Below, one piece after another: positions 5,188-16,268 of a stretch of 16,268 nt of DNA. The notes below the pieces were generated by a model. The model was given only the letters and a program-made list of their open reading frames with translations, did not search any database and had not been told where the DNA came from. Origin of the DNA: Myxococcales bacterium (GTDB lineage Bacteria > Myxococcota_A > Polyangia > Fen-1088); contig PMZX01000045.1 in NCBI GenBank assembly GCA_003170035.1, positions 345 to 16,612 on the forward strand. Direction: 5' to 3'. Within the stretch, counting starts at the first letter, position 1. Every line of letters starts with the position of its first letter. Position numbers and translations under genes: made by a program.

Positions 5188-5281
5188 ATTGGTTGGTCTC
5201 CATGAGCCTGAAGGGGGTGCCCACGCAAGTGTTGAATTTGCAGCCACTTTGTGGCATCTGTCGAGCCCGGAGTCGCCCCCT

Positions 5282-5857
5282 ATGGACCAAAAGCTCTCTG
5301 ATTACGTCGTGGAATGTGTGCGCCGTGCCGGGGTCAGGCACGTGTTCCTCGTCCCCGGGGGCGGGGCCATGCACCTCAATGATTCTCTCGGACGCAGCGG
5401 ACTAGAGCTGGTGCACAACCATCACGAGCAGGCGTCGGCTATCGGGTGCGAGGTATGTGCAAAGATGACCGGCGGGCTCGGAGCTGCCTTCGTGACGACC
5501 GGATCAGGTGGCACCAATGCCGTCACCGGCTTGGCTGGGGCGTGGCTGGATTCGACCCCGTGTATCTTCCTCCGGACCGGACAGAGGATCCTGCACACCA
5601 CGGCGCTTGGCGCCATGGGGTTCGCGATTCCGTCCGCCATCGCCTTGCGAGAAGATGTGCGGGAGGTTCTGGCTGCCAAAGGACCCGTGGTGTGCAATGT
5701 GGCCGTCATCCAGGATGAAGACCGCCTGCCGCGCATTGCTTCTCGCCCGCTCCCGGGCGGGGGCATGGTTTCAACACCTCTCGAAGACCTGTTTCCATAC
5801 CCACCACGCGCCGAGTTTCTAGAAAACATGACGGTGGCGCCACTTGAGGATGTATGA
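5282..5857 (+). pseudogene. In-frame doubly deleted TPP-dependent (acetolactate-synthase-like) gene, 191 codons
   Basis: The open frame is a shortened copy of the enzyme type encoded in full at 10806-12605 (599 residues). Residues 1-99 match full-length 1-98, including VPGG.AMHLNDSLGR and the catalytic-glutamate motif HEQASAI (E49). Residues 100-121 (TGQRILHTTALGAMGFAIPSAI) match full-length 415-436. Residues 122-191 match full-length about 531-599, including VREVLAAKGPVVCNV and PLEDLFP. About 316 and 94 residues are therefore missing, among them the middle domain and the GDG...NN motif that binds TPP and magnesium, so it cannot be a working enzyme alone. Both joins keep the frame, the start has CGGAG upstream, and the stop overlaps the next gene as ATGA. 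It may still be translated, serving coupling to the isomerase gene, or could be a partial subunit; loss of function is the simplest reading. Confidence 0.85.
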
Positions 5858-6684
5858 ACATCGGAATCATGCAAGGTAGGCTCGTGCCACCCGAGGGTGG
5901 CAGGTTTCAGTCTTTTCCGCGGTTCGGCTGGCGTCGCGAGATTGAGTTTGCGGCTACGGCCGGCCTCGACTGCATCGAGTGGATCGATGACGAGTTCGGC
6001 ATTGGCGAGAACCCGTTGTGGAGCAGTTCCGGCTTGGCGGAACTGCGTGCCCTTTCGACTCGGCATGGCGTTGCCGTGAGATCGGTTTGCGCCGACTGGT
6101 TCATGGAGAATCCGCTGCTCCGATGTGGAGAGACGGAGAGACGCGCACGTGTGGCGCGCCTCTGCCAGCTCATCGCCATCGGCGGTGAGCTGGGCATCGA
6201 GCGCATCGTGATCCCGTTCGTCGACAACTCGCGGATCGAGGGGGATAACGACGTGCAGGCAGTGGTGCGTACACTCCTCGAGGCCGAGCCCGCCGCACGG
6301 ATGAGTGGCGTTGAGCTGCACCTGGAAACGGCGCTCGCGCCCCGACCGTTCGCCGTTCTGCTCGATCGTCTGCCGCCGGCAACCTTTCGAGTCAACTACG
6401 ATTCGGGGAATAGCTCGTCGCTGGGCTACTCACCGACCGAGGAATTTGCAGCCTATGGCGCGCGCGTCGGAAGTGTGCACATCAAGGATCGATTGCGCGG
6501 CGGAGGCACCGTGGCGCTGGGTACGGGGGACGCGGACTTCCCGGCGCTGTTCCGGGCGCTGGCTGCGCATCAATACCGAGGGGATTTCATCCTCCAGGCG
6601 GCGCGCGGCCAGGCGGGTGACGAAGTAGAGTTGGCACGTCGCAACCGCGCTTTTGTCGAGCGGGCCGCTGAGGCAGCGCGATGA
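5854..6684 (+). CDS. TIM-barrel sugar-phosphate isomerase/epimerase (xylose isomerase-like)
   Basis: A 276-residue protein of the AP-endonuclease-2/xylose-isomerase-like TIM-barrel family, to which UlaE/SgbU L-xylulose-5-phosphate 3-epimerases belong. It begins MNIGIMQGRL and carries the expected metal-site strands: ELHLETA (E158), VNYDSGN (D183) and GSVHIKDR (H209). At the fourth metal position the sequence reads FILQAARG, with Q248 where many members have Glu. The substrate is likely a keto sugar or sugar phosphate in the surface-sugar pathway, but it cannot be named. Its start overlaps the stop of the deleted TPP gene, and its stop overlaps the start of the oxidoreductase stub, both as ATGA, so the three are translationally linked. 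Confidence 0.82.
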   Translation: MNIGIMQGRLVPPEGGRFQSFPRFGWRREIEFAATAGLDCIEWIDDEFGIGENPLWSSSGLAELRALSTRHGVAVRSVCADWFMENPLLRCGETERRARVARLCQLIAIGGELGIERIVIPFVDNSRIEGDNDVQAVVRTLLEAEPAARMSGVELHLETALAPRPFAVLLDRLPPATFRVNYDSGNSSSLGYSPTEEFAAYGARVGSVHIKDRLRGGGTVALGTGDADFPALFRALAAHQYRGDFILQAARGQAGDEVELARRNRAFVERAAEAAR

Positions 6685-6830
6685 GAGTGCTCTTTGTGGG
6701 CCTCGGGGGTATCGGTCAGCGCCACCTGCGCCACCTGCGCGCCCTTTGGGGCACGGAGGTTTGCGTCGTCGCATGGCGTAGTCGGGGCGTGGTCCGCGCT
6801 ATTTCCGCGAACGTTGAGGTCGCACTATGA
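6681..6830 (+). pseudogene. N-terminal stub of a Gfo/Idh/MocA oxidoreductase (49 codons)
   Basis: The frame starts MRVLFVGLGGIGQRHLRHLR, the typical nucleotide-binding start of Gfo/Idh/MocA sugar oxidoreductases (GLGGIGQRH is the Rossmann glycine loop). It continues plausibly to the second strand (VCVVAWRSRG) and then ends at TGA after 49 codons, where family members are about 320-350 residues. There is no room downstream, since the next gene starts within its stop as ATGA. Its last codons supply GAGG, the Shine-Dalgarno of the next gene, so they probably come from the original gene end, which implies an internal deletion. The full enzyme would have oxidised or reduced a sugar with NAD(P). 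Confidence 0.75.
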
Positions 6831-7657
6831 CGCCAGCACAGTTGTTTGACCTGAGTGGACGCGTGGTTGTCATCACCGGAGGAGCGGGCCTTCTAGGCGT
6901 CCGTCACGCGGAGGCTGTAGCGGGTGCAGGTGCAATTCCGGTCCTGGTTGATCTCCGGCTCGAAGCCGCTCAACGTCGCGCCGCAGAGATTGCTTCCCGG
7001 TTTGGGGTTGCCGCCGTGGGCTTGTCCGCCGATATCACCCGAGCCGACGCGGTCGAAGCGTTGCGCGAAGAGGTGCTACGTCGGTTCGGGCAGGTCGACG
7101 TGCTCATCAACAACGCGGCCAACAACCCGAAGCAGGAAGATGCAGGCAAGGGAACGGAATGGTCTCGCCTCGAATCGTTCCCCCTCCGCCAGTGGGAGGC
7201 TGATCTTGCGGTCGGGCTTACCGGAGCCTTTCTCTGCAGTCGCGTCCTTGGTGCGGAGATGGCACGGCGTGGGCGCGGCGTTATCCTAAACATTGCGTCA
7301 GATCTTGGCATTATTGCGCCTGATCAGCGTCTCTACCGCCGCCCCGGTCTTGCCGAGGACCAGCAACCCGTGAAACCGGTAACCTATTCAGTTGTCAAGA
7401 CGGGGCTCATTGGGCTCACGCGATACCTCGCCACCTATTGGGCCGACAGGGGCGTGCGCGTGAATGCGCTTTCACCGGGTGGGGTTCACAACAACCAACC
7501 CGAGGATTTCGTTCAACGGCTTTCGCAGCTCATTCCGATGGGGCGGATGGCGAACCTCGATGAGCTCCAGGGCGCCGTCCTATTCTTGTGTTCCGACGCG
7601 TCCTCGTACATGACGGGCGCGAACTTGGTGCTGGATGGAGGTCGCACATGCTGGTGA
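6827..7657 (+). CDS. SDR-family oxidoreductase
   Basis: A 276-residue classical SDR. The cofactor loop is TGGAGLLG (17-24), with NNAA at 95-98, catalytic S158 in NIASDLG, and Y187/K191 in YSVVK. The C-terminus VLDGGRTCW is the usual SDR ending. It resembles the oxidoreductases found beside ulosonic-acid and deoxysugar genes (PtmA-type neighbourhoods), so it probably reduces a keto group on a sugar intermediate. The ATG overlaps the oxidoreductase stub, and GAGG eight bases upstream is its ribosome site. It is the last intact gene of the plus-strand arm. The SDR at 8986-9840 on the other arm shares the same insert around the active-site loop (a long stretch between APxxQLY and the catalytic Tyr), so the two may be paralogues. 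Confidence 0.87.
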   Translation: MTPAQLFDLSGRVVVITGGAGLLGVRHAEAVAGAGAIPVLVDLRLEAAQRRAAEIASRFGVAAVGLSADITRADAVEALREEVLRRFGQVDVLINNAANNPKQEDAGKGTEWSRLESFPLRQWEADLAVGLTGAFLCSRVLGAEMARRGRGVILNIASDLGIIAPDQRLYRRPGLAEDQQPVKPVTYSVVKTGLIGLTRYLATYWADRGVRVNALSPGGVHNNQPEDFVQRLSQLIPMGRMANLDELQGAVLFLCSDASSYMTGANLVLDGGRTCW

Positions 7658-7713
7658 ATCAGAGGAGGGAACTCGGGCGGTCTGAACTGATGGATTCCGT
7701 CGAGGAGATCTAG
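7648..7713 (+). other. 21-codon ORF overlapping the SDR end, possible gene remnant
   Basis: ATG 7648 opens a 21-codon frame (MLVNQRRELGRSELMDSVEEI) that overlaps the SDR stop by ten bases and ends at TAG 7711-7713, inside the stop region of the converging methyltransferase. Its placement is that of a coupled next gene, but it is too short to recognise. It could be one more internally deleted gene or chance. No recognised family. Confidence 0.2.
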
Positions 7714-8906
7714 GGCTGGTAGAGCAGAATCAGTTTGTTGCCCAAGCCCAAGTCGTGTCGAATCTGATCTGCAATCTCGCGTTGGAAACCGCGTGACGAG
7801 ACCAGAATCGGTTCGTTTCGCGAGCCCAATTCATGCGGTGAGATCACCGGGATCTCGCGCAGGCGTTGCTGCTGGTAGTTGCGGTTCGAATCCACGAAAA
7901 CGGCGATTCTCCGAGGATCGAGCCCTCCGGTGGCAAGCAACCGCAGCGTGTGTGCGCCGACACCCCAGACAATCATGCGCTCACCTGGTCCAATCGCCTG
8001 ATCGATCTTGCTGCGAATGCGCGCGTCTTCGGCTTGGCATCCCTGGACGTACGCGCGAAGGCCCTCACCTGTTTCGGTGTCCCGTTCGGCGGGAGCAGAC
8101 CTCGCGCATTTTTCGTAGACACCGTAGGTCGTCAGACACACAGCTTCATTTTGCGCCCTTCTAGCACGTCCTGAGTTCAGAGTGCGGAAACGCCGAGACT
8201 GCATCAGATTGTTCAGCGATCCAGGCGAAAAGAAATTGATGTGCTCGACACTGAACTCCTGGAAAGGCGCATCCAGATTCGGATCAAGTCGGCTCGCATC
8301 AGGCACTTCCAGGTAGACTCTTCCGCCGTCCCGCACGAGTCGGTGGAACTGCGCAACCGTCCGATCCAGATCGCGAATGTGTTCCATCACACCCACCAGG
8401 ATCAAAAAGTCGTATGGATCATCGGGCAGGGTTGCGGTGAACACCGTCTCGGATACCGCTCGCACGCCAATGCCTTGCGCTGCACGAGCGCACGCAGGGG
8501 AAGGATCTGAGCCTTGAACGTTGGGAAAGCCTCGTTCCTGAAGGATCTTGAGCAAGTGCCCTGAGCCACAGCCGACTTCCAGAATTCGCGAATCCTTGTT
8601 CTGGATGTACGCCTCGATCGTCAGGGCTGCACGCAAGAAGCGGTCTTCGGAAGCACTAGAGTCCCTGCCTCCTCGGAATTCATAGTCGTATTTCGACAGG
8701 TCGCGATAGTATTCATCAAATACGGACTGGGGTGGGATCATGTCCGCGTAACCGGCTCCACATTCCGAGCAGACGACCACGTCATACCCGTCAAGTAGGT
8801 GTACACCCGAGAGGTGATCAAATGACTGGCGAAAGATCGGACTGCACGTTTCGCAGCCGCAGACTGGGCACGCTCTATGCGATAAGAGTGGCGTGTCCAA
8901 TGGCAT
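7710..8906 (-). CDS. Sugar C-methyltransferase-like SAM enzyme (first of two paralogues)
   Basis: A 398-residue protein with the three-part layout of NDP-keto-sugar C-methyltransferases. It has an N-terminal zinc domain with CPVC (13-16) and C46-x2-C49, a SAM-binding core LEVGCGSGHLL (109-119) with MEHIRDL (174-180), and a C-terminal Rossmann-like part beginning IVWGVGAHTLRLL (312-324). The motif SVEHINFFSP (219-228) holds the Glu-His pair that acts in characterised members such as TcaB9 (recalled from the family). Such enzymes methylate the carbon next to a keto group. The ATG has a perfect AGGAGG four bases upstream (8911-8916). It is the last gene of the minus-strand operon and ends inside the converging plus-strand region with no terminator visible. 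A different carbon acceptor is possible. Confidence 0.82.
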   Translation of the reverse strand: MPLDTPLLSHRACPVCGCETCSPIFRQSFDHLSGVHLLDGYDVVVCSECGAGYADMIPPQSVFDEYYRDLSKYDYEFRGGRDSSASEDRFLRAALTIEAYIQNKDSRILEVGCGSGHLLKILQERGFPNVQGSDPSPACARAAQGIGVRAVSETVFTATLPDDPYDFLILVGVMEHIRDLDRTVAQFHRLVRDGGRVYLEVPDASRLDPNLDAPFQEFSVEHINFFSPGSLNNLMQSRRFRTLNSGRARRAQNEAVCLTTYGVYEKCARSAPAERDTETGEGLRAYVQGCQAEDARIRSKIDQAIGPGERMIVWGVGAHTLRLLATGGLDPRRIAVFVDSNRNYQQQRLREIPVISPHELGSRNEPILVSSRGFQREIADQIRHDLGLGNKLILLYQP

Positions 8907-8985
8907 TCAGCCTCCTGATTCGTCCGGCGGACATGACAAGCTGAGGATTGGAGCAAAGAAGATCGTCCCGTTCGGCAGACGTCCC

Positions 8986-9840
8986 CTAGACAATCGTCCA
9001 ACCTCCGTCCACGATCAGGGATTGGCCTGTTGTGAAGGCAGACGCGTCCGACGCAAGATACAATAGTGCGCCCACCAATTCGCGAGGGTTTCCCACCCTG
9101 CCAAGAACCGTGCGCGCCTTCAGACGCTCCAGGAAAGGATCGCCCGGCGCAACGCTGTTGTCGCCGGCCTCTTCAAGATTGGAGAATGGACCTGGCAGGA
9201 TCGCGTTCGCTCGCACACCGAAGGGCCCCCAGAAAGAAGCCGTGTACCGAGTGAATGCGAGTAGCGCCGCTTTGGATGCGCTATATGCGGGTGGATTGAC
9301 GAACGCTGTGCCGGCATACAGCTGCGGGCTGGGCGCCACCACCGCATACATCGTGCAGATGTTCACGATGCTGCCATGGCCGCGGCTCCGCATACCTGCT
9401 CCGATGCGCTGAGTCGTAAGCGCGGACCAGTAGACACCCGCGGTCAAGTTGCGCATCCAACCGTCGAACGTGGCGTCTTCCAGGTGGCCTTCGGGAACAT
9501 TGAACCCAGTGCGTGGACCCAGTTCATGCGCGTTGTTTACAAGTACATCCACCACCGGATGTTCGCGCTCCACTTGCGTCAGCGCCTCCTTTGCGGCGGG
9601 GACGTCGTAGAGGTCTACGCAATAGGCCTGGACGCGGCCGCTACCATATTCGTCGTTCAACGGGGCAGCCTGCCGTTCGACACGCGACGAGCCTCCAAAC
9701 GCGAGGACCGTGGCGCCATTGTCGAGCAGCGCGCGCACCATGGTACGCCCCAGAAACCCACTCGCGCCGGTGAGCAACACCGTCTTGCCTGTGAGCGAGA
9801 AGAGCGAGCCGGCCCCGTAGTCGCCTTTCTTCACTACCAT
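8986..9840 (-). CDS. SDR-family oxidoreductase with a Thr in place of the catalytic Ser
   Basis: A 284-residue classical SDR. The cofactor loop TGASGFLG is at 24-31, NNAH at 102-105, and the catalytic pair Y186/K190 is in YSASK. At the usual catalytic serine the sequence reads NICTMYA (160-166), so T163 probably stands in for it. The C-terminus GQSLIVDGGWTIV is standard. A long loop (VVAPSPQLYAGTAFVNPPAY) separates the Thr from the Tyr, similar to the SDR at 6827-7657. ATG 9840 overlaps the end of a short coupled ORF. Likely a reductase for a keto sugar of the minus-strand pathway; substrate unknown. The 79 bases between it and the next gene hold only the AGGAGG of that gene. Confidence 0.85.
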   Translation of the reverse strand: MVVKKGDYGAGSLFSLTGKTVLLTGASGFLGRTMVRALLDNGATVLAFGGSSRVERQAAPLNDEYGSGRVQAYCVDLYDVPAAKEALTQVEREHPVVDVLVNNAHELGPRTGFNVPEGHLEDATFDGWMRNLTAGVYWSALTTQRIGAGMRSRGHGSIVNICTMYAVVAPSPQLYAGTAFVNPPAYSASKAALLAFTRYTASFWGPFGVRANAILPGPFSNLEEAGDNSVAPGDPFLERLKARTVLGRVGNPRELVGALLYLASDASAFTTGQSLIVDGGWTIV

Positions 9841-9953
9841 GCGACACGTTCCCTTTCAGCAGCCAGTTTCTGGCAAGTCACGCACGCGATTGGACTTCCA
9901 CTTATTGGCCTCGGCGCGAAGGCCAAACGTCGTTCCTTGTAGAAGCGGTCCAT
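9834..9953 (-). pseudogene. 39-codon coupled ORF between two SDR genes, possible remnant
   Basis: ATG 9953 overlaps the upstream SDR stop by one base, and the TAG overlaps the next SDR start by seven, so the frame fills the 112-base junction exactly as a coupled gene would. The start MDRFYKERRLAF faintly recalls the M-x-x-x-Y-x-x-K/R-R-x-LA beginning of acylneuraminate cytidylyltransferases before their IPARGGSKG motif, but that motif is absent and the rest is not recognisable. If right, it would be the lost CMP-sugar synthetase of this cluster. This is speculative; it may be only a spacer. Confidence 0.25.
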
Positions 9954-10723
9954 CACACTCTTGTCTGGCCTCCGTCGACAACGAGGCAGGCGCCTGTGAT
10001 GAAGGTCGCGCGTTCTGACGCCAGAAATGCCACGGCCGAACCGACATCTTCGGGCGTGCCAAAACGGCCGAGTGGCACCTCGGCAGCAATCATCGCCGTG
10101 ACACTGCTCCTATCTCGATCCAGCTTGCGTTGCCAGGTTCCATTCGGGAAGAGGATGTTTCCAGGAGCCACTGTGTTTACGCGGACACCATGCTGGCCCA
10201 CACGCCTCGCCAGATCCTTACTGTAATGTTCCAAAGCCGCCTTGGCAGCGCCATAGGGGATCGGTGCCCCCAGGCTTTCCAGTCCGGCGATCGAACTGAT
10301 GAATGTGATACTGCCGTGATTTGCCTTCACCATCTCTGGCAAGAAGATTTCCACGAGTCGAACCGTGATCCACAAATTGATATGGAAAACTGGTTCCCAA
10401 TCCGCGGGGGTGATCTGCCAGCCATTCTTCGCCGTCCCGCTTCCAATGTTGCAGACCAGAGCATCCACTCGGCCAAAGTGATTCACCACCCGGCGCAGTG
10501 CGGCCTCCCCAATTTCCGGCTGCGACAGATCACCGGCGAACGAAATGACCCGGTCAGCACGGCCTTCGCCGAGTTCCGCGGAGGCGGCCGACAGGGTGCT
10601 GGCGTCGCGGCCTGTGATCATGACCCGTGCGCCTTCCTCCAGAAATGTGGCGGCAATGCCTTTGCCGATCCCACGGGAGGCCCCGGCCACAAAAACTACC
10701 TTGTCTTCTAGTCCAAGGTGCAT
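9953..10723 (-). CDS. SDR-family oxidoreductase
   Basis: A 256-residue classical SDR (FabG-like length). The cofactor loop AGASRGIG is at 13-20, the usual NNAG is replaced by CNIGSG (91-96), catalytic S144 is in FISSIAG, and Y157/K161 in YGAAK. It ends TGACLVVDGGQTRV. I chose ATG 10723; a TTG nine bases further upstream is also possible, and neither has a strong Shine-Dalgarno. It belongs to a different SDR subgroup from the two others in the window, having no long active-site insert. It lies 82 bases after the TPP enzyme gene and may reduce or oxidise that enzyme's keto-sugar product; that is inference from position. Confidence 0.85.
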   Translation of the reverse strand: MHLGLEDKVVFVAGASRGIGKGIAATFLEEGARVMITGRDASTLSAASAELGEGRADRVISFAGDLSQPEIGEAALRRVVNHFGRVDALVCNIGSGTAKNGWQITPADWEPVFHINLWITVRLVEIFLPEMVKANHGSITFISSIAGLESLGAPIPYGAAKAALEHYSKDLARRVGQHGVRVNTVAPGNILFPNGTWQRKLDRDRSSVTAMIAAEVPLGRFGTPEDVGSAVAFLASERATFITGACLVVDGGQTRV

Positions 10724-10728
10724 CTTCG

Positions 10729-10809
10729 TCAAATATCTAGCCGCCTATGTCCGGTCGCGCAGCTCCAACAATGCGGAACCCCAAGATTGTGCAACGAGAG
10801 CTGTCTCAT
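10729..10809 (-). other. 26-codon coupled ORF after the TPP gene, possible frameshifted remnant
   Basis: ATG 10809 overlaps the TPP-gene stop as ATGA and the frame ends just before the SDR start. In the frame shifted by two bases the same DNA reads RIVGAARPDIGG, which looks like the cofactor loop of an SDR or similar Rossmann enzyme. This could be the decayed N-terminus of another oxidoreductase. The evidence is slim: one motif and a suggestive position. Confidence 0.18.
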
Positions 10810-12605
10810 GATTCCTCGATGGGTTCAATCAGCATATTGGCGCGGAACTCCGCGCGATCGAGGAACGGCCACAAGTCCTCGAGCGGCTTGGACATCATCG
10901 AACCGTCGGGGCGCTGCACTGAAGTGAGGCTCGGGGCGCGCGGCTCGTCGTCGGGTCCCATGACCTCACATACCACCGGCCCGGGCGTGGCGAGGACCTC
11001 GCGGATCTGCTCGGCGAGCCTCGCTGGCGTGTCGATGCGCGCTGTCGCAAGGCCATATGCGGCGGCGAGTTTCACCGAATCGGGGAGGGACAGTCCACTC
11101 GTGTCGTCGGCGCCGACCAATTTCGCGAAATACCGATTCTGCGAGGTTCGGATCGAGGAGTACCCACGGTTGTTTAGGACGAAAACCTTGATCGGCAACT
11201 TCATCCGGGCCACGGTTTCAAGCTCCTGGATATTGAAGGAGAAGCCGCCATCTCCTTCGACGCAGATGGTCCGGCGTCGCCCCGCTGCGAGACATGCTCC
11301 GATCGCTGAAGGCAGGCCGAACCCCATCGCGCCGAGGCCCCTGGCATGAAACACTCGCTGGCCAGCCTTCGCCTTATATGCGAGCAGGAAGATCTCGATT
11401 GCAGCCCCGGCGCTACAAGACGCCAATATCTCCCCCTCATCGAGTTCCTGACTGAGCGCCTCGGAGAAGATGTAGGTGCTGACCTTGTCCTTCATAGCGC
11501 GGTGCTCGGGAGTAACCACCGGGTACTTGCGTTTCCACTCGGCACAGCGCAAGAGCCACGGCGAGCGATCTCGCAGAGGTACGCGGTCCGCCTGCCGAAG
11601 GGCTTGCGCGAAGAACGCCCTGGCATCGGTGCAGATCGGTAAGTCGATGTGCGTTTTCAGCTTGCCGATTTCAGCCGCATCGATATCGACGATGACTTTC
11701 TTCGCGGCACGCGCCAAGCGGTCGTGAGCGTACCCAGTCAGCGCCATATCGAACCGAGCCCCGACACCGAGCAGCCAATCACTGTTCTGCAGGGCAAAGT
11801 TAGCACCGCGGGGAGCGATCGATCCAGGTCTGCCGACGAAAAGCGGATGGGTTTCGGGAAGCAGATCGAGGCCCAGCCAGGTCGTGAGAATCGGTATCTG
11901 CATCCGCTCGGCGAAGCGCAAGAACTCAGCCTGTGCGCCAGCGAGGCGAATGCCGTTGCCGGCGAGCAGAACCGGGCGCTCCGCACGATCGAGGAGAGCC
12001 AGCGCGTTCGCCACCTGGAGCTCCAGGTCCGGCGCTTCAATGTGGGCAAGTTCTCCCGGCACGAACCCAGGCAACGACTCCGGGTCTATAGATGCGGCCT
12101 GCACGTCGAGCGGCAGGTCCAACCACACCGGGCCGCGTCTGCCCGTCGTGGCGAGGTGACATGCCCGTTCCAGATGATACCGGATCGAGTTCGGTTCCGT
12201 CACCTGAACGGCGTACTTGGTGATCGGCGAGACAATCGAGACGATGTCGATTTCCTGGACGCCGAGCTGGCGCAGGCCCGTGTTTCCTTTTAGGTCTGCC
12301 CGCTTCACCTGTCCCGAGAAGAACAGACATGCCGTAGAGTCAAGGTATGCGGCGGCGACACCCGTCACGGCGTTCGTCCCGCCGGGCCCCGCCGTCACGG
12401 AGGCCACCCCGAGTTGGTTCGCGACCTTTCCGTATGCGTCGGCAGCGATGGCACTTGCCTGCTCGTGCAAGTTGGACACGACTTCGATTCTTTTCTCGCG
12501 CCCGAGCGAATCGTTGAGGTGCATTGCTGCACCGCCCGGGACGAAGAAGACGTGCTTGACGCCGCGGTCGCCAAGAAACCGCATCAGGTAGTCAGAGAGC
12601 TTCAA
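10806..12605 (-). CDS. TPP-dependent enzyme, acetolactate-synthase superfamily (sugar-locus type)
   Basis: A 599-residue, full-length three-domain TPP enzyme. The N-terminal Pyr domain has VPGGAAMHLNDSLGR (22-36) and the catalytic glutamate E48 in HEQASAI. The middle domain runs from about 190 to 330. The C-terminal PP domain has GAMGFGLPSAIG (425-436) and the metal/TPP motif GDGGFSFN...NN (451-479). Acetolactate synthases join two pyruvates, but copies inside sugar loci (YerE, AviB and EvaG types) transfer a two-carbon unit from pyruvate to a keto sugar, making a branched sugar. With SDRs, C-methyltransferases and a ulosonate synthase around it, a sugar role is more likely than valine synthesis, and no small subunit gene is present. 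It starts with TTG 12605. A shortened relative lies at 5282-5857. Confidence 0.88.
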   Translation of the reverse strand: MKLSDYLMRFLGDRGVKHVFFVPGGAAMHLNDSLGREKRIEVVSNLHEQASAIAADAYGKVANQLGVASVTAGPGGTNAVTGVAAAYLDSTACLFFSGQVKRADLKGNTGLRQLGVQEIDIVSIVSPITKYAVQVTEPNSIRYHLERACHLATTGRRGPVWLDLPLDVQAASIDPESLPGFVPGELAHIEAPDLELQVANALALLDRAERPVLLAGNGIRLAGAQAEFLRFAERMQIPILTTWLGLDLLPETHPLFVGRPGSIAPRGANFALQNSDWLLGVGARFDMALTGYAHDRLARAAKKVIVDIDAAEIGKLKTHIDLPICTDARAFFAQALRQADRVPLRDRSPWLLRCAEWKRKYPVVTPEHRAMKDKVSTYIFSEALSQELDEGEILASCSAGAAIEIFLLAYKAKAGQRVFHARGLGAMGFGLPSAIGACLAAGRRRTICVEGDGGFSFNIQELETVARMKLPIKVFVLNNRGYSSIRTSQNRYFAKLVGADDTSGLSLPDSVKLAAAYGLATARIDTPARLAEQIREVLATPGPVVCEVMGPDDEPRAPSLTSVQRPDGSMMSKPLEDLWPFLDRAEFRANMLIEPIEES

Positions 12606-12840
12606 GCAATCACCTCGTTCGGGTATCTAGGCATGCCAGGGATGCCGCCTCTGGGGAAACCAGCCGCGCATGGCCACGGTCTCGAGCAGTCTATGGTTAG
12701 CACGGCGCACTGACTTTCTGCCGCAATGGGGATCCATGACGGCCACGCAGGGTTCTCCAGCACGTTGGGTCGATGGTCGAGAATGCACGACGGCTGGGAA
12801 GCCTAGATGAATCAACTGTCCCGTCAAGAGCTGAAGATGG
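12606..12840 (-). other. 235-base junction in the operon, possibly decayed coding DNA
   Basis: Between the methyltransferase stop and the TPP start lies the longest gap inside the minus-strand operon. Apart from the TPP ribosome site, it holds a short open frame from ATG 12737 to TAG 12627 (36 codons, ending RGWFPQRRHPWHA). Protein-like sequence also continues in the same frame upstream of this ATG, from a TTG near the methyltransferase end. I recognise no family. No terminator hairpin or promoter stands out. It could be the remains of a lost gene. Confidence 0.25.
12609..12616 (-). promoter_or_regulatory. Strong ribosome binding site for the TTG-started TPP gene
   Basis: On the minus strand GAGGTGAT, a full eight-base match to the complement of the 16S rRNA tail, ends three bases before TTG 12605 (seven bases from the GAGG core). 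It fixes the unusual start codon of the TPP enzyme. Confidence 0.65.
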
Positions 12841-14025
12841 TCAGCCACGGGGAGAGCCGGATGCGGGTGATCCTTGATCGGGATACAGGAGCACGATCGG
12901 ATTTGGTACGCCGCTGTCGATGATTTGCCTTCGGATCTCCTCCTGAACACGTCGCGACGAAATCACGATAGGCAGCACCGGAAGGCCGAAAACGGCTCGT
13001 GGGCCAACGATCGGAACTCCCAGCAGTTGTTGACCGTGGTACTGCGGGTTCGTGTCTATGAACGCGCGGATATGCGCTTTGGCGAGCTGGGTGCAGCCGA
13101 GCAGGCGCTGCGTGTGGAGCCCGGCGCCCCACACCAGTACTTCTTTCTGCGTTTGGACCAATTCATCGATTACACGAGTGGGGTCCTTGAGGACGGATCT
13201 TGCTGCGGCTATGTACTCGACCAGGCGGGCCTCGATTTCGCAGTCGTTGACGATGCGGCTTCTTTGCCATACCGAGGTAATGACGCCCATGATGGAGACC
13301 ACGGATCCCAAGAGCAGTTGGTCAAAACCCAGACGCAGCATCAGGTTTTGCAGCGACACGGTGGAGAAGAAATTGATGTGCTCGGGAGTGAAATGCGCGA
13401 ACAGGTCGCGCTCGTACGTCCAACCCAGCGGCGGGTTGGGCTCTACCGAACGGACAAAACTGTAGGCGTCGGGGACCTCGATGAACACCCGCCCACCATC
13501 GGACAGCAGGCGGCGAATCTCGCACAAGAAGCCGACAAGGTCAGCGACGTGCTCCAGCACGTGGCTGAGAATGACGAAGTCGAAGCGACCAATGTCACGC
13601 CGGTCGAAGAGGCTGCCCTGGACAACGTTCAGCCCATGCTGCTCCCGGGCCGCAACGCAAGCCGCTTCGGACGGCTCAAGTCCCACTACGTCGCCATAGC
13701 CCTGATCCTTGATCCGGCAGAGCAGTTGACCGGAACCGCATCCTATGTCCAGAATCCTGTCACCTCGGCGCAAGAATCGGATGATGGCTTGCTCCGAGGC
13801 GTCATATCGCTTTGCCTCTTCGGAACTGTCGCAAGAATGTCGATAGTGCTGATCGAGTGCCGTCTGGTCGGGCAGATTGTCGGCATAGGCAAAGCCGCAC
13901 TCGCTGCAGACAACGACGTCATTGCCGCCCGGAATGCTGCCAGTCGTTGGGACCTCGAGACGTTGGGAATAGATCGTCTTCTTCTTCGAGCTTCCGCAGA
14001 CCGCGCAATCTCTGCTGATGATCAT
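12841..14025 (-). CDS. Sugar C-methyltransferase-like SAM enzyme (second paralogue)
   Basis: A 394-residue protein with the same three-part layout as the enzyme at 7710-8906. The zinc-binding Cys pairs are CAVC (7-10) and C40-x2-C43, the SAM loop is LDIGCGSGQLL (92-102), LSHVLEHV is at 153-160, TPEHINFFS (213-221) holds the conserved Glu-His pair, and VLVWGAGLHTQRLL (296-309) opens the C-terminal domain. It probably methylates a carbon of an NDP-keto-sugar. I chose ATG 14025 because the zinc domain then begins at once as in the paralogue, and because a short upstream frame ends in an ATGA overlap here; the longer frame from 14088 adds 21 unremarkable residues. Identity to the paralogue is concentrated in motifs, so this is not a recent duplication. 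Confidence 0.82.
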   Translation of the reverse strand: MIISRDCAVCGSSKKKTIYSQRLEVPTTGSIPGGNDVVVCSECGFAYADNLPDQTALDQHYRHSCDSSEEAKRYDASEQAIIRFLRRGDRILDIGCGSGQLLCRIKDQGYGDVVGLEPSEAACVAAREQHGLNVVQGSLFDRRDIGRFDFVILSHVLEHVADLVGFLCEIRRLLSDGGRVFIEVPDAYSFVRSVEPNPPLGWTYERDLFAHFTPEHINFFSTVSLQNLMLRLGFDQLLLGSVVSIMGVITSVWQRSRIVNDCEIEARLVEYIAAARSVLKDPTRVIDELVQTQKEVLVWGAGLHTQRLLGCTQLAKAHIRAFIDTNPQYHGQQLLGVPIVGPRAVFGLPVLPIVISSRRVQEEIRRQIIDSGVPNPIVLLYPDQGSPASGSPRG

Positions 14026-14143
14026 CTCATTGGTCCTCGGGTTCCGCGTGGCGTCTCGAAGGATCGTCCGTCCAGTGTCGCCTTGCAAGTCGCGGCCAGC
14101 TCTTACAACATCTCTGGTACGAGCGCCATCCCTCGCGAGACAG
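14022..14143 (-). other. Short operon junction with a broken reading frame
   Basis: The roughly 120 bases between the phosphatase stop and the methyltransferase start contain ATG 14129 followed by eight codons and a TAA. The same frame then stays open for 26 more codons and ends in an ATGA overlap with the methyltransferase. It has the position of a coupled gene with one nonsense codon, but no family is recognisable. It may be untranslated spacer. Confidence 0.18.
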
Positions 14144-14635
14144 TCAGCTCGGGTTGATGGATGGGACCAGCATGTCCAGCAATTCGCGAACGGCGCCGTG
14201 TCCGGCGGCCCGCTTGGTCACCAGCGCCGCTCGTCGCGCCACTGATGGGTGAGCGTCGGCGGGAACAGCGGCGAGCCCCGCAATCTCCATGGCCTCGACA
14301 TCGTTGACATCGTTGCCCATGAAAGCGACTGCCTCGAGCGCCAGGTCGTGGCGGGCGGCGAAGTCCCGTAGCGCCGCAGCCTTGTCCTTGCACCCAAGGT
14401 ACACGTCGTTGATCGCCAGCTTGGCCGCGTAGCGAGTGACAATTGCCGAGTCCTCTCCCGAGCAGAGAGCAAAGCGGAGTCCAGCGCGCCCGGCACGTGA
14501 AATACCCATCACGTCCAAGAAACAGAAGCGCTTCAGCTCCTGGCCGGCACCGTCCCACCAGAAACCGTCGTCGGTGAGCACACCATCCACGTCGAGCATG
14601 ACGGCTCGTATGCGCCCAAGATCAGGCTCCGACAC
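14144..14635 (-). CDS. KdsC-like HAD phosphatase
   Basis: A 163-residue HAD phosphatase of the small, capless KdsC type. Motif I is DVDGVLTD (15-22) with nucleophile D15 and acid/base D17, motif II is S59 in LCSGED, the motif III lysine is in GCKDK (81-85), and motif IV is GNDVND (107-112). KdsC enzymes remove the phosphate from KDO-8-phosphate or, in related pathways, a nonulosonate-9-phosphate. Its gene directly follows the NeuB-type synthase, overlapping it by 14 bases, so it most likely dephosphorylates that enzyme's product. The start is GTG 14635; the first ATG in frame lies at motif I and would cut the fold. Length is close to the usual 160-190 residues. Confidence 0.87.
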   Translation of the reverse strand: MSEPDLGRIRAVMLDVDGVLTDDGFWWDGAGQELKRFCFLDVMGISRAGRAGLRFALCSGEDSAIVTRYAAKLAINDVYLGCKDKAAALRDFAARHDLALEAVAFMGNDVNDVEAMEIAGLAAVPADAHPSVARRAALVTKRAAGHGAVRELLDMLVPSINPS

Positions 14636-15494
14636 GGCGAAGCTTCTTCATAATAGGGATCTCACGATCGAGGATGGTCTTGGTATTGGCGCCAAGCGCT
14701 ATCTCGACAAGTCGGATATCGCGTGCCAGGTGCTCCGCGCCACTTGGACCGAGCGACGCAGCGTGGTCGCTGCCCCACATCGCGCGATCAAGCGTGATGT
14801 GGCGTTCGACCACGCAAGCGCCCAGTGCCACTGCGGCGACCGACGACGCGATGCCAGACTCATGTCCGGAGTAGCCGACAGGAACGCCGTACCGCTCGCG
14901 GAACATCGGGATGACTCTAAGATTCAGTTCCGGATACTCTGCAGGGTATGTGCTGGTGGTATGCACGACGATGAGGTTGCCCCTGCCGAGAACCTCGACG
15001 GCATGATCGACCTGCGCGAGTGTGCTCATGCCAGTGGAAAGCATGATGGGTTTGCCCGTGGCGCGCGTGTGCTTGAGCAAATGGTCGTCGGTTAGTGACG
15101 CCGAAGCCACCTTGTAGACGGGCGGGTTGAAGCGCTCGATGAAGTCCACCGAGCCCTCGTCCCAGCAGGACGCAAACCAGGCGATGCCGACTTTCCGACA
15201 GTACTCGTCGATGGCCGCATACTCTTTCTCACCGAACTCGAGTCCTCGTTTCAAATCTCCGTTGGTCGTGCCGAAGGGGCTCTCGCGGGGGCGCGCAAGC
15301 TCCTCCCGAGAGTACACGACGTCGACCGTCCGCTTCTGGAACTTGACAGCGTCGAGCCCGTTCTTCACAGCGAGATCTATCAGCTTACGGGCGATGTCCA
15401 CATCGCCGTTATGGTTGATGCCAATCTCACCGATAAGATAGCTGGGGGACCCGTCGCCGACCAGCCTGGTTCCAATCTTCACCTGTTGTGCCAT
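14622..15494 (-). CDS. neuB: NeuB-family ulosonic acid synthase lacking the SAF domain
   Basis: A 290-residue PEP-condensing aldolase of the sialic acid synthase family. Motifs in order: GEIGINHNGD (22-31), KFQKR (51-55), STGMST (153-158), HTTSTYP (178-184), GYSGHE (207-212) and ERHITLDR (230-237). H211 and H232 are 21 residues apart, as are the two manganese ligands H215/H236 of the meningococcal enzyme. NeuB enzymes add PEP to an aldose (ManNAc, or its phosphate or analogues) to give a 2-keto-3-deoxy acid. The usual C-terminal SAF domain of about 60 residues, which reaches into the partner's active site, is absent; the protein ends right after the barrel. The phosphatase next door suggests a phosphorylated substrate. 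I chose ATG 15494, since the longer frame from 15545 precedes the conserved fold and overlaps the SIS gene. Confidence 0.88.
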   Translation of the reverse strand: MAQQVKIGTRLVGDGSPSYLIGEIGINHNGDVDIARKLIDLAVKNGLDAVKFQKRTVDVVYSREELARPRESPFGTTNGDLKRGLEFGEKEYAAIDEYCRKVGIAWFASCWDEGSVDFIERFNPPVYKVASASLTDDHLLKHTRATGKPIMLSTGMSTLAQVDHAVEVLGRGNLIVVHTTSTYPAEYPELNLRVIPMFRERYGVPVGYSGHESGIASSVAAVALGACVVERHITLDRAMWGSDHAASLGPSGAEHLARDIRLVEIALGANTKTILDREIPIMKKLRRVGA

Positions 15495-15510
15495 ATTCTT
15501 TCCGTTCTCC

Positions 15511-16098
15511 TCAGCAAACGCCAAGCGATTCCTCGACGAGACCACAGAGGATGTGCCCGAGCGTGATGTGACTTTCCTGGATTCGTGGCGTGACTCTAGA
15601 GGGGATCGCTAGGAGCAGGTCGCATGCGGTGAGGCATTGCCCGCCACCTTCGCCCGTCAGAGCTGCAGTGAAGGCTCCGCGTTCGCGCGCTGCTCGCAGT
15701 CCTCGGATGACGTTCCCCGAGTTTCCGCTGGTGGAAATACCGATGGCCACGTCCTGAGGCTCGACCCACGCATGGATCTGCCGCTCGAACACGGCGTCCC
15801 ACTCGTAGTCGTTCGCAATCGCGGTCAGGGCCGATGTGTTCCCATGCAGGACCATCGCGCGAAGCGGCCCGCGCTCGCGTTGGTAGCGCCCGACCAGTTC
15901 GGCAGCTATGTGCTGGGCGTCTGCGGCGGATCCGCCGTTCCCAAACAGCACCAGCTTGCCGCGGCCGCGAAGTGCATCGCCGACGCGTCGGGCGAGTTCG
16001 AAAACCCCTCCAATCAACTCGTCACTCCAGCTCCTTTTCACCGCAATACTCTCTTCGAGCTCTCGGCGCACCTGATCGATCTGTTCACGACTCACCAT
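15511..16098 (-). CDS. gmhA: GmhA-like SIS isomerase (sedoheptulose-7-phosphate isomerase)
   Basis: A 195-residue SIS-domain protein. It has NGGSAADAQHIAAELVGRY (54-72) and STSGNSGN (122-129), and ends with RIQESHITLGHILCGLVE (172-189). H63, E67, Q174 and H182 fall at the spacing of the zinc ligands H61, E65, Q172 and H180 of E. coli GmhA, so it should be an active isomerase turning sedoheptulose-7-phosphate into D-glycero-D-manno-heptose-7-phosphate, rather than a DiaA-like protein without catalysis. I chose ATG 16098; the upstream in-frame extension to 16206 is not family-like. NeuB follows after 16 bases. Its place before NeuB and the phosphatase raises the possibility that a heptose phosphate feeds this pathway, though it may instead feed a separate heptose branch. 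Confidence 0.87.
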   Translation of the reverse strand: MVSREQIDQVRRELEESIAVKRSWSDELIGGVFELARRVGDALRGRGKLVLFGNGGSAADAQHIAAELVGRYQRERGPLRAMVLHGNTSALTAIANDYEWDAVFERQIHAWVEPQDVAIGISTSGNSGNVIRGLRAARERGAFTAALTGEGGGQCLTACDLLLAIPSRVTPRIQESHITLGHILCGLVEESLGVC

Positions 16099-16268
16099 TG
16101 GTATGAGGCGGCAATATATCAGGATAGGCGGGCTGCCAAAACCTTCCCCGGGACCTTGAAGGTCGATTTCGCGAAATCCGTCGGTGCCGCGATGAGCACG
16201 TGGCAACTGACCAAGCGAGCACGGGCGTCCGCAGCTCGGCCCTAAACGTCGACGGGCGCGCCGCGACT
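16099..16268. other. Right edge with no supported gene
   Basis: On the minus strand one frame (about VLIAAPTDFAKSTFKVPGK near 16190-16134) looks mildly protein-like and could be the tail of an upstream gene, but it is too short to name. No promoter or ribosome site for the isomerase gene is clear. Confidence 0.3.

What the first reader, a model, noticed from the sequence alone, without database searches (positions are those of the whole stretch)
5282..5857. Doubly deleted but in-frame copy of a TPP enzyme, kept as a 191-codon ORF
Compared with the intact 599-residue relative in the same window, this ORF keeps the first ~98 residues, a 22-residue piece around GAMGF, and the last ~70 residues. 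Two separate in-frame deletions removed the middle domain and the TPP/Mg motif. Random decay should give frameshifts and stops; two clean in-frame losses plus a kept ATGA link to the next gene suggest selection for an open frame, either to keep translation of the isomerase going or because the mini-protein has a use. The catalytic-Glu segment and C-terminal segment could still pair with the intact enzyme.
Basis: partly seen in the sequence, partly recalled or inferred. Interest (0 to 1): 0.7.

Follow-up and report, generated by a model that had tools for sequence, protein, structure and literature searches.

The report
Hollowed-out enzyme genes in one operon
A sugar-enzyme gene has lost most of its middle and probably makes no working enzyme; it and a second hollowed-out gene still read cleanly through to intact genes downstream, which may be why they stayed open, though luck is not excluded.

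Summary
Confirmed: ORF 5282-5857 is a TPP-enzyme gene with two internal in-frame deletions. Against an intact database orthologue (P0132, 597 aa; 94% and 88% identical over the outer pieces) about residues 97-411 and 436-527, with the TPP/Mg motif, are gone. Between isomerase and SDR, where 10 of 10 related isomerase loci examined carry a full-length Gfo/Idh oxidoreductase, the window has a 49-codon remnant (6681-6830). Both remnants run in frame into ATGA overlaps with intact downstream genes. The mini-TPP has lost the family's protein constraint: 3 of its 13 differences from P0132 hit invariant columns, versus 2 of 1822 in intact pairs, so a working or partner subunit is unlikely. At this low divergence the absence of stops and frameshifts is uninformative; the in-frame deletions (about 1/9, or 1/27 with the Gfo remnant) mildly favour selection to keep ribosomes reaching the isomerase and SDR. 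Published ATGA-type pairs behave this way (13 of 14 coupled). Neutral luck remains a real rival. Assembly error is unlikely: the two ORFs are counted in 7 and 12 contigs, one longer than this one, and the Gfo remnant recurs in two variants.

The parts
5282..5857 (+). mini-TPP ORF, 191 codons, doubly deleted in frame
5269..5272 (+). GGAG, possible Shine-Dalgarno 9 nt before the mini-TPP ATG
   Evidence: sequence
5282..5569 (+). piece 1: residues 1-96, first part of the N-terminal TPP domain (PF02776), HEQ kept
5570..5644 (+). piece 2: LRTGQRILHTTALGAMGFAIPSAIA (codon 97 may come from either side of join 1)
5645..5854 (+). piece 3: residues 122-191, C-terminal tail
5854..5857 (+). ATGA overlap mini-TPP stop / isomerase start; GAGG at 5846-5849
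5854..6684 (+). full-length sugar isomerase/epimerase-like gene (PF01261, 276 aa); deviates at 1 of 42 columns invariant in nine relatives
6681..6830 (+). 49-codon remnant of a Gfo/Idh/MocA oxidoreductase gene (about 345-360 aa in relatives)
6681..6684 (+). ATGA overlap isomerase stop / remnant start; GAGG at 6670-6673
6827..6830 (+). ATGA overlap remnant stop / SDR start; GAGG at 6816-6819
6827..7657 (+). full-length SDR gene (276 aa), 67-69% to the syntenic SDR of L029, L030 and L040
10806..12605 (-). full-length TPP enzyme, 599 aa, possible functional replacement (inferred)

Best explanation
The ORF is the remnant of a TPP-dependent (acetolactate-synthase-like) enzyme gene of what looks like a surface-sugar operon: mini-TPP, isomerase, mini-Gfo, SDR. 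Two of these four genes have been emptied by internal deletions and still read in frame. The mini-TPP makes no working enzyme (supported). The intact TPP gene at 10806-12605 could have made the old one dispensable (inferred).
For: Homology and joins. Syntenic cassette TPP-isomerase-Gfo-SDR with full-length TPP and Gfo in L029, L030 and L040, and full-length Gfo right after the isomerase in 10 of 10 loci examined, so both genes were lost here. All three junctions are ATGA, each with a GAGG upstream. Mini-TPP differences hit invariant columns at the neutral rate (3 of 13; 18% expected), against 2 of 1822 in 63 intact pairs, Fisher p 2.8e-6. The genes behind the remnants look kept: the isomerase deviates at 1 of 42 columns invariant in nine relatives, the SDR at 7 of 109 invariant in four (six hydrophobic swaps and one R to Q) (not a matched comparison with the TPP test). 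The Gfo remnant recurs as P0122 and P0123 (92%, 86%), both shorter by three codons but open; P0123 has Glu for the second Gly of GxGxxG. Literature: 13 of 14 tested overlapping pairs strictly coupled, and in the haloarchaeal pairs an early stop in the upstream ORF left almost no downstream translation (PMC6728339, passages); Rho polarity when an upstream gene is translationally silenced (PMC12548453, passages).
Against: The in-frame argument is weak: 1/9 for the two TPP joins, about 1/27 with the Gfo remnant, for a case picked because it looked odd. No DNA of a close intact orthologue was available, so no dN/dS. The Gfo variants come from a protein database, which would hardly show a frameshifted one. 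In L029 and L030 the TPP/isomerase and Gfo/SDR junctions are gaps of 5-14 nt, so these overlaps are not shared by the relatives looked at. PMC6728339 also notes that coupling and independent initiation can coexist in E. coli, and each downstream gene here has its own GAGG. RNA folding at the three junctions is unremarkable (z -0.2, -1.5, +1.0). No expression data.
Confidence: 0.55

Rival explanations
1. Plain neutral decay, caught while still open: both genes became dispensable, lost internal stretches, and the frame was kept by luck; nothing selects for it.
For: Substitutions behave neutrally. Divergence is low, so 21-70% of simulated neutral remnants have no stop or small frameshift. GC by codon position is like that of the neighbours, i.e. 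decay is recent. In-frame luck for the joins is 1/9 to 1/27.
Against: Two gutted genes in one operon, both in frame to ATGA, with both downstream genes conserved; the Gfo remnant is open in three variants, though a protein database favours open ones.
Confidence: 0.3
2. The mini-protein is functional, e.g. a regulator or partner that pairs with the intact 599-aa enzyme.
For: HEQ segment and C-terminal tail kept; open frame with a plausible start site.
Against: Y59C, P75S and L174P at columns that are the same in 142 of 142 other homologues; N-terminal domain cut short, central domain and TPP/Mg motif missing; poor AlphaFold2 model (pLDDT 47.4, pTM 0.41; a control fold of P0132 could not be run); no second mini-TPP in the lists seen (120 of 1655 hits listed, 59 genomes, 377 genomes at E up to 1e-24).
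Confidence: 0.08
3. Assembly artefact: the contig falsely joins pieces of an intact gene.
For: The genome is a draft of 540 contigs, 76.88% complete, with N stretches in two other contigs.
Against: No N in the window. The same 191-aa protein is counted in 7 contigs and the 49-aa one in 12, the longest 16967 bases, against 16612 for this contig. The Gfo remnant also occurs in two variant sequences. Replacements at invariant sites are not expected in an intact gene that was merely mis-assembled. The counted contigs may not be independent data.
Confidence: 0.07

Closest known systems
Bacterial pseudogenes (e.g. transcribed pseudogenes of Mycobacterium leprae, PMC2753549, passages seen)
   Same: Inactivated enzyme gene with constraint lost; open pseudogenes exist: 25 of 486 transcribed M. 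leprae pseudogenes had no in-frame stop
   Different: Here two genes of one operon are both emptied in frame and both end in ATGA overlaps with conserved genes
Translationally coupled ATGA gene pairs (PMC6728339 and PMC12548453, passages seen)
   Same: Four-base stop/start overlaps with a Shine-Dalgarno-like GAGG in the upstream ORF's tail
   Different: The upstream partner is a gene remnant rather than a working gene; coupling is inferred, not measured
TPP-isomerase-Gfo/Idh-SDR cassette of L029 (Silvibacterium bohemicum), L030 and L040
   Same: Same gene order
   Different: TPP and Gfo full length there; the L040 isomerase appears frameshifted

Membership tests
TPP-dependent enzyme (acetolactate synthase-like) | N-terminal domain PF02776 | tested here: inconclusive
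   Matched over residues 4-101 (profile 2-99 of 119); the end of the domain is deleted
TPP-dependent enzyme (acetolactate synthase-like) | Central domain PF00205 | tested here: not met
   No match in the mini-ORF; present in the 599-aa enzyme
TPP-dependent enzyme (acetolactate synthase-like) | GDG..N TPP/Mg motif in PF02775 (motif recalled) | tested here: not met
   P0132 residues 449-480 lie in deletion 2; no PF02775 match
TPP-dependent enzyme (acetolactate synthase-like) | Catalytic Glu (HEQ; role recalled) | tested here: met
   HEQ kept at 48-50
Pseudogene | Loss of protein-level constraint | tested here: met
   3 of 13 differences at invariant columns vs 2 of 1822 in 63 intact pairs
Pseudogene | Essential domains lost | tested here: met
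Translationally coupled leader cistron | Stop/start overlap with the downstream gene | tested here: met
   ATGA at 5854, 6681 and 6827
Translationally coupled leader cistron | Downstream translation depends on upstream translation | not testable with these tools
   Needs a reporter experiment
Gfo/Idh/MocA oxidoreductase (6681-6830) | Rossmann start with GxGxxG (motif recalled) | tested here: met
   N-terminal match to the L029 enzyme (tblastn E 8.5e-11) with GLGGIG
Gfo/Idh/MocA oxidoreductase (6681-6830) | Full-length enzyme with C-terminal domain | tested here: not met
   Only 49 codons; no NCBIfam match; origin of the last eight residues unresolved

The most novel reading that the evidence does not exclude
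Operons can keep emptied-out genes as 'ribosome relays': the coding content is deleted but start, frame and an ATGA stop are kept by selection because downstream genes get their ribosomes through them. Here two relays in one operon, one of them seen in three variant sequences, would be natural equivalents of laboratory non-polar in-frame deletions.
Probability: 0.4. Interest if true: 0.6.

Novelty: new member of a known kind. Interest (0 to 1): 0.42.

Why it matters
If frames of dead genes are kept for coupling, in-frame remnants should be common at ATGA junctions and rare elsewhere: a test of how strongly translational coupling shapes gene loss, and a warning that short 'conserved' ORFs in operons need not encode useful proteins.

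Tried and rejected
Considered and rejected: (a) openness as evidence of selection (simulation). (b) A frameshifted third TPP copy on C162 as a decay control: the break is a scaffold gap (nn), not decay. (c) Gfo remnant tail as the original C-terminus: it fits the C-termini no better than shuffles (285 of 500 reach the score); it fits the stretch behind the head slightly (16 of 500) and, over whole enzymes, best an internal motif (SANVEVAL / SAHVETAL; 88 of 500), so its origin is open. (d) The viral collection: 24 loci, at most 44% identity, not used. (e) Other remnants in the window's gaps: blastx of 12 stretches against ORFs of at least 120 aa from 26 loci found only the ends of sugar-isomerase-like ORFs and the stretch shared with C156. 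(f) A first baseline that used the same sequences to define conserved columns was circular and was replaced by the leave-clade-out one; there, pairs with fewer than 6 or more than 40 differences, or fewer than 30 sequences left, were not used, pairs were drawn in one random order, and P0124 and the L029 row are the same enzyme. (g) Terms for the sugar pathway in papers gave nothing specific in the listing. (h) The weak isomerase hit L075 (31%, residues 182-253) was not examined for a Gfo neighbour.

Full report
What is there. The window lies on contig C200 (positions 345-16612) of a draft genome of 5.19 Mb in 540 contigs, 76.88% complete, which looks like a MAG. The closest intact relative seen is not the 599-aa enzyme in the window but a database protein, P0132 (597 aa, counted in 6 contigs), found with a profile of the L029 enzyme, two fragments and the mini-protein itself (120 best of 8000 scored candidates listed). 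Mini-TPP residues 1-101 are 94% and 122-190 are 88% identical to it. Relative to P0132, about residues 97-411 and 436-527 are missing; GDG at 449 and DNDGY at 476 lie in the second gap, HEQ at 48 is kept. At the first join codon 97 (Leu) stands where both parent segments of P0132 have Val, so it may come from either side.

A second gutted gene. In L029, L030 and L040 the full-length TPP gene is followed by the isomerase, a Gfo/Idh/MocA oxidoreductase of about 345-360 residues and the SDR; the L040 isomerase itself looks frameshifted. Seven further genomes of the class carry an isomerase homologue (8 of 317 with G000, at E up to 1e-30). A full-length Gfo gene follows the isomerase in all ten of these loci (7 plus 3); in the seven, no TPP gene was seen in the 1.5 kb held upstream. 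The window has instead a 49-codon ORF, 6681-6830, that begins like that enzyme (tblastn E 8.5e-11 with L029) and ends in the ATGA of the SDR. Where its last eight codons come from is unresolved. The same short ORF exists in databases as an identical protein (12 contigs, longest 16967 bases) and as two variants of 46 residues, 92% and 86% identical (P0122; P0123 on a 23308-base contig, named 'predicted dehydrogenase'). Both variants lack one of two tandem HLR units, and P0123 has lost the second glycine of GxGxxG. A protein database would hardly show a frameshifted variant, so their openness says little.

Uniqueness of the mini-TPP. In the 120 listed of 1655 hits (lengths 0.55-1.75 times the query) the next best after the identical protein scores 175 against 427 bits. 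Among 59 genomes, the own one included, and 377 genomes of the phylum at E up to 1e-24, only the own locus matched the whole query well. Some weak matches (about 25-38% identity) also span most of the query; those I looked at (L015, L018, L019) run along the N-terminal part of longer ordinary enzymes, and I did not inspect all. Together with the Gfo variants this suggests, without proving, that Gfo was emptied first and TPP later.

Is the protein still under selection? Mini-TPP and P0132 differ at 13 of 190 shared positions. Three of these (Y59C, P75S, L174P) are at columns with one residue in all 142 other full-length homologues. With columns defined after leaving out close relatives, 35 of 190 columns are invariant, so 2.4 of 13 differences would fall there under neutrality; 3 do. 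In 63 disjoint intact pairs it is 2 of 1822 (Fisher p 2.8e-6). Caveats: the pairs are related to each other, the 13 differences include changes on the P0132 branch, and P0132 is an orthologue by sequence, not by synteny. Against too strong a reading: intact enzymes can also break conserved columns. 122 of 143 break none of the 98%-conserved columns, but three break four, the window's own 599-aa enzyme among them, at far greater distance. The isomerase deviates at 1 of 42 columns invariant in nine relatives, and the SDR at 7 of 109 invariant in four (six hydrophobic swaps and one R to Q); these sets are smaller, so this is not a matched control.

Is the open frame more than luck? A neutral simulation with 5-9 amino-acid changes leaves no stop in 78-87% of runs, and neither stop nor small frameshift in 21-70% (assumed 0.03-0.1 frameshifts per substitution). 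What remains is that the two TPP joins are in phase (1/9) and the Gfo remnant ends in phase at the SDR start (about 1/3): roughly 1/27, for a case chosen because it was striking. The biological reason to expect selection is good. Overlapping stop/start pairs are usually strictly coupled: 13 of 14 pairs tested, and in the haloarchaeal pairs an early stop in the upstream ORF left almost no downstream translation, while for E. coli the authors add that coupling and independent initiation can coexist (PMC6728339, passages). Loss of upstream translation also causes Rho polarity (PMC12548453, passages). All three junctions here are ATGA with GAGG in the tail of the preceding ORF. In L029 only the isomerase/Gfo junction is ATGA and the two others are gaps of 5 and 13 nt; in L030 the three are gaps of 5, 8 and 14 nt.

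Artefact? The window has no N, the ORFs are counted in 7 and 12 contigs including one longer than C200, the Gfo remnant recurs in variants, and the substitution pattern shows real decay. I did not see reads, and the contigs may share data.

Structure. AlphaFold2 on 25 sequences gave mean pLDDT 47.4, pTM 0.41, best in the first 70 residues and below 50 through both joins. The control job on P0132 could not be started, so this is weak support only.

Novelty. Six paper searches bore on pseudogenes, polarity, coupling and remnants (the last found no paper) and one on the sugar pathway. In these listings I saw no description of gene remnants kept for coupling, but that is listings only, of an open-access library, and terms may differ. 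I therefore file it as a new member of a known kind, a pseudogene, and keep the relay as the bold reading.

Noticed in passing
window 16108-16268 and L077 (C156) 1-162: The contig end shares 162 bp at 95.7% with the start of another contig of the same genome that carries a related NeuB-HAD-TPP-Gfo operon; possibly the same locus in another strain, or a duplicated operon start.
   Followed up: partly
P0002 against P0003/P0152: Proteins identical over about the first 105 residues, then clearly different right after SGQVKR, near the position of join 1 of the mini-ORF; recombination or chimeric assembly.
   Followed up: no
L078:9973-9974 region (C162): A further TPP copy looks frameshifted only because of an nn scaffold gap.
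   Followed up: yes
L031 7998-9741; L040 7960-8711: TPP gene (L031) and isomerase gene (L040) appear split by frameshifts in other genomes.
   Followed up: no
window 7710-16206, - strand: Convergent cassette with two related methyltransferases, two SDRs, an intact TPP enzyme, a KdsC-like phosphatase, a NeuB-like synthase and a GmhA-like isomerase: a sugar pathway whose product I could not name.
   Followed up: no
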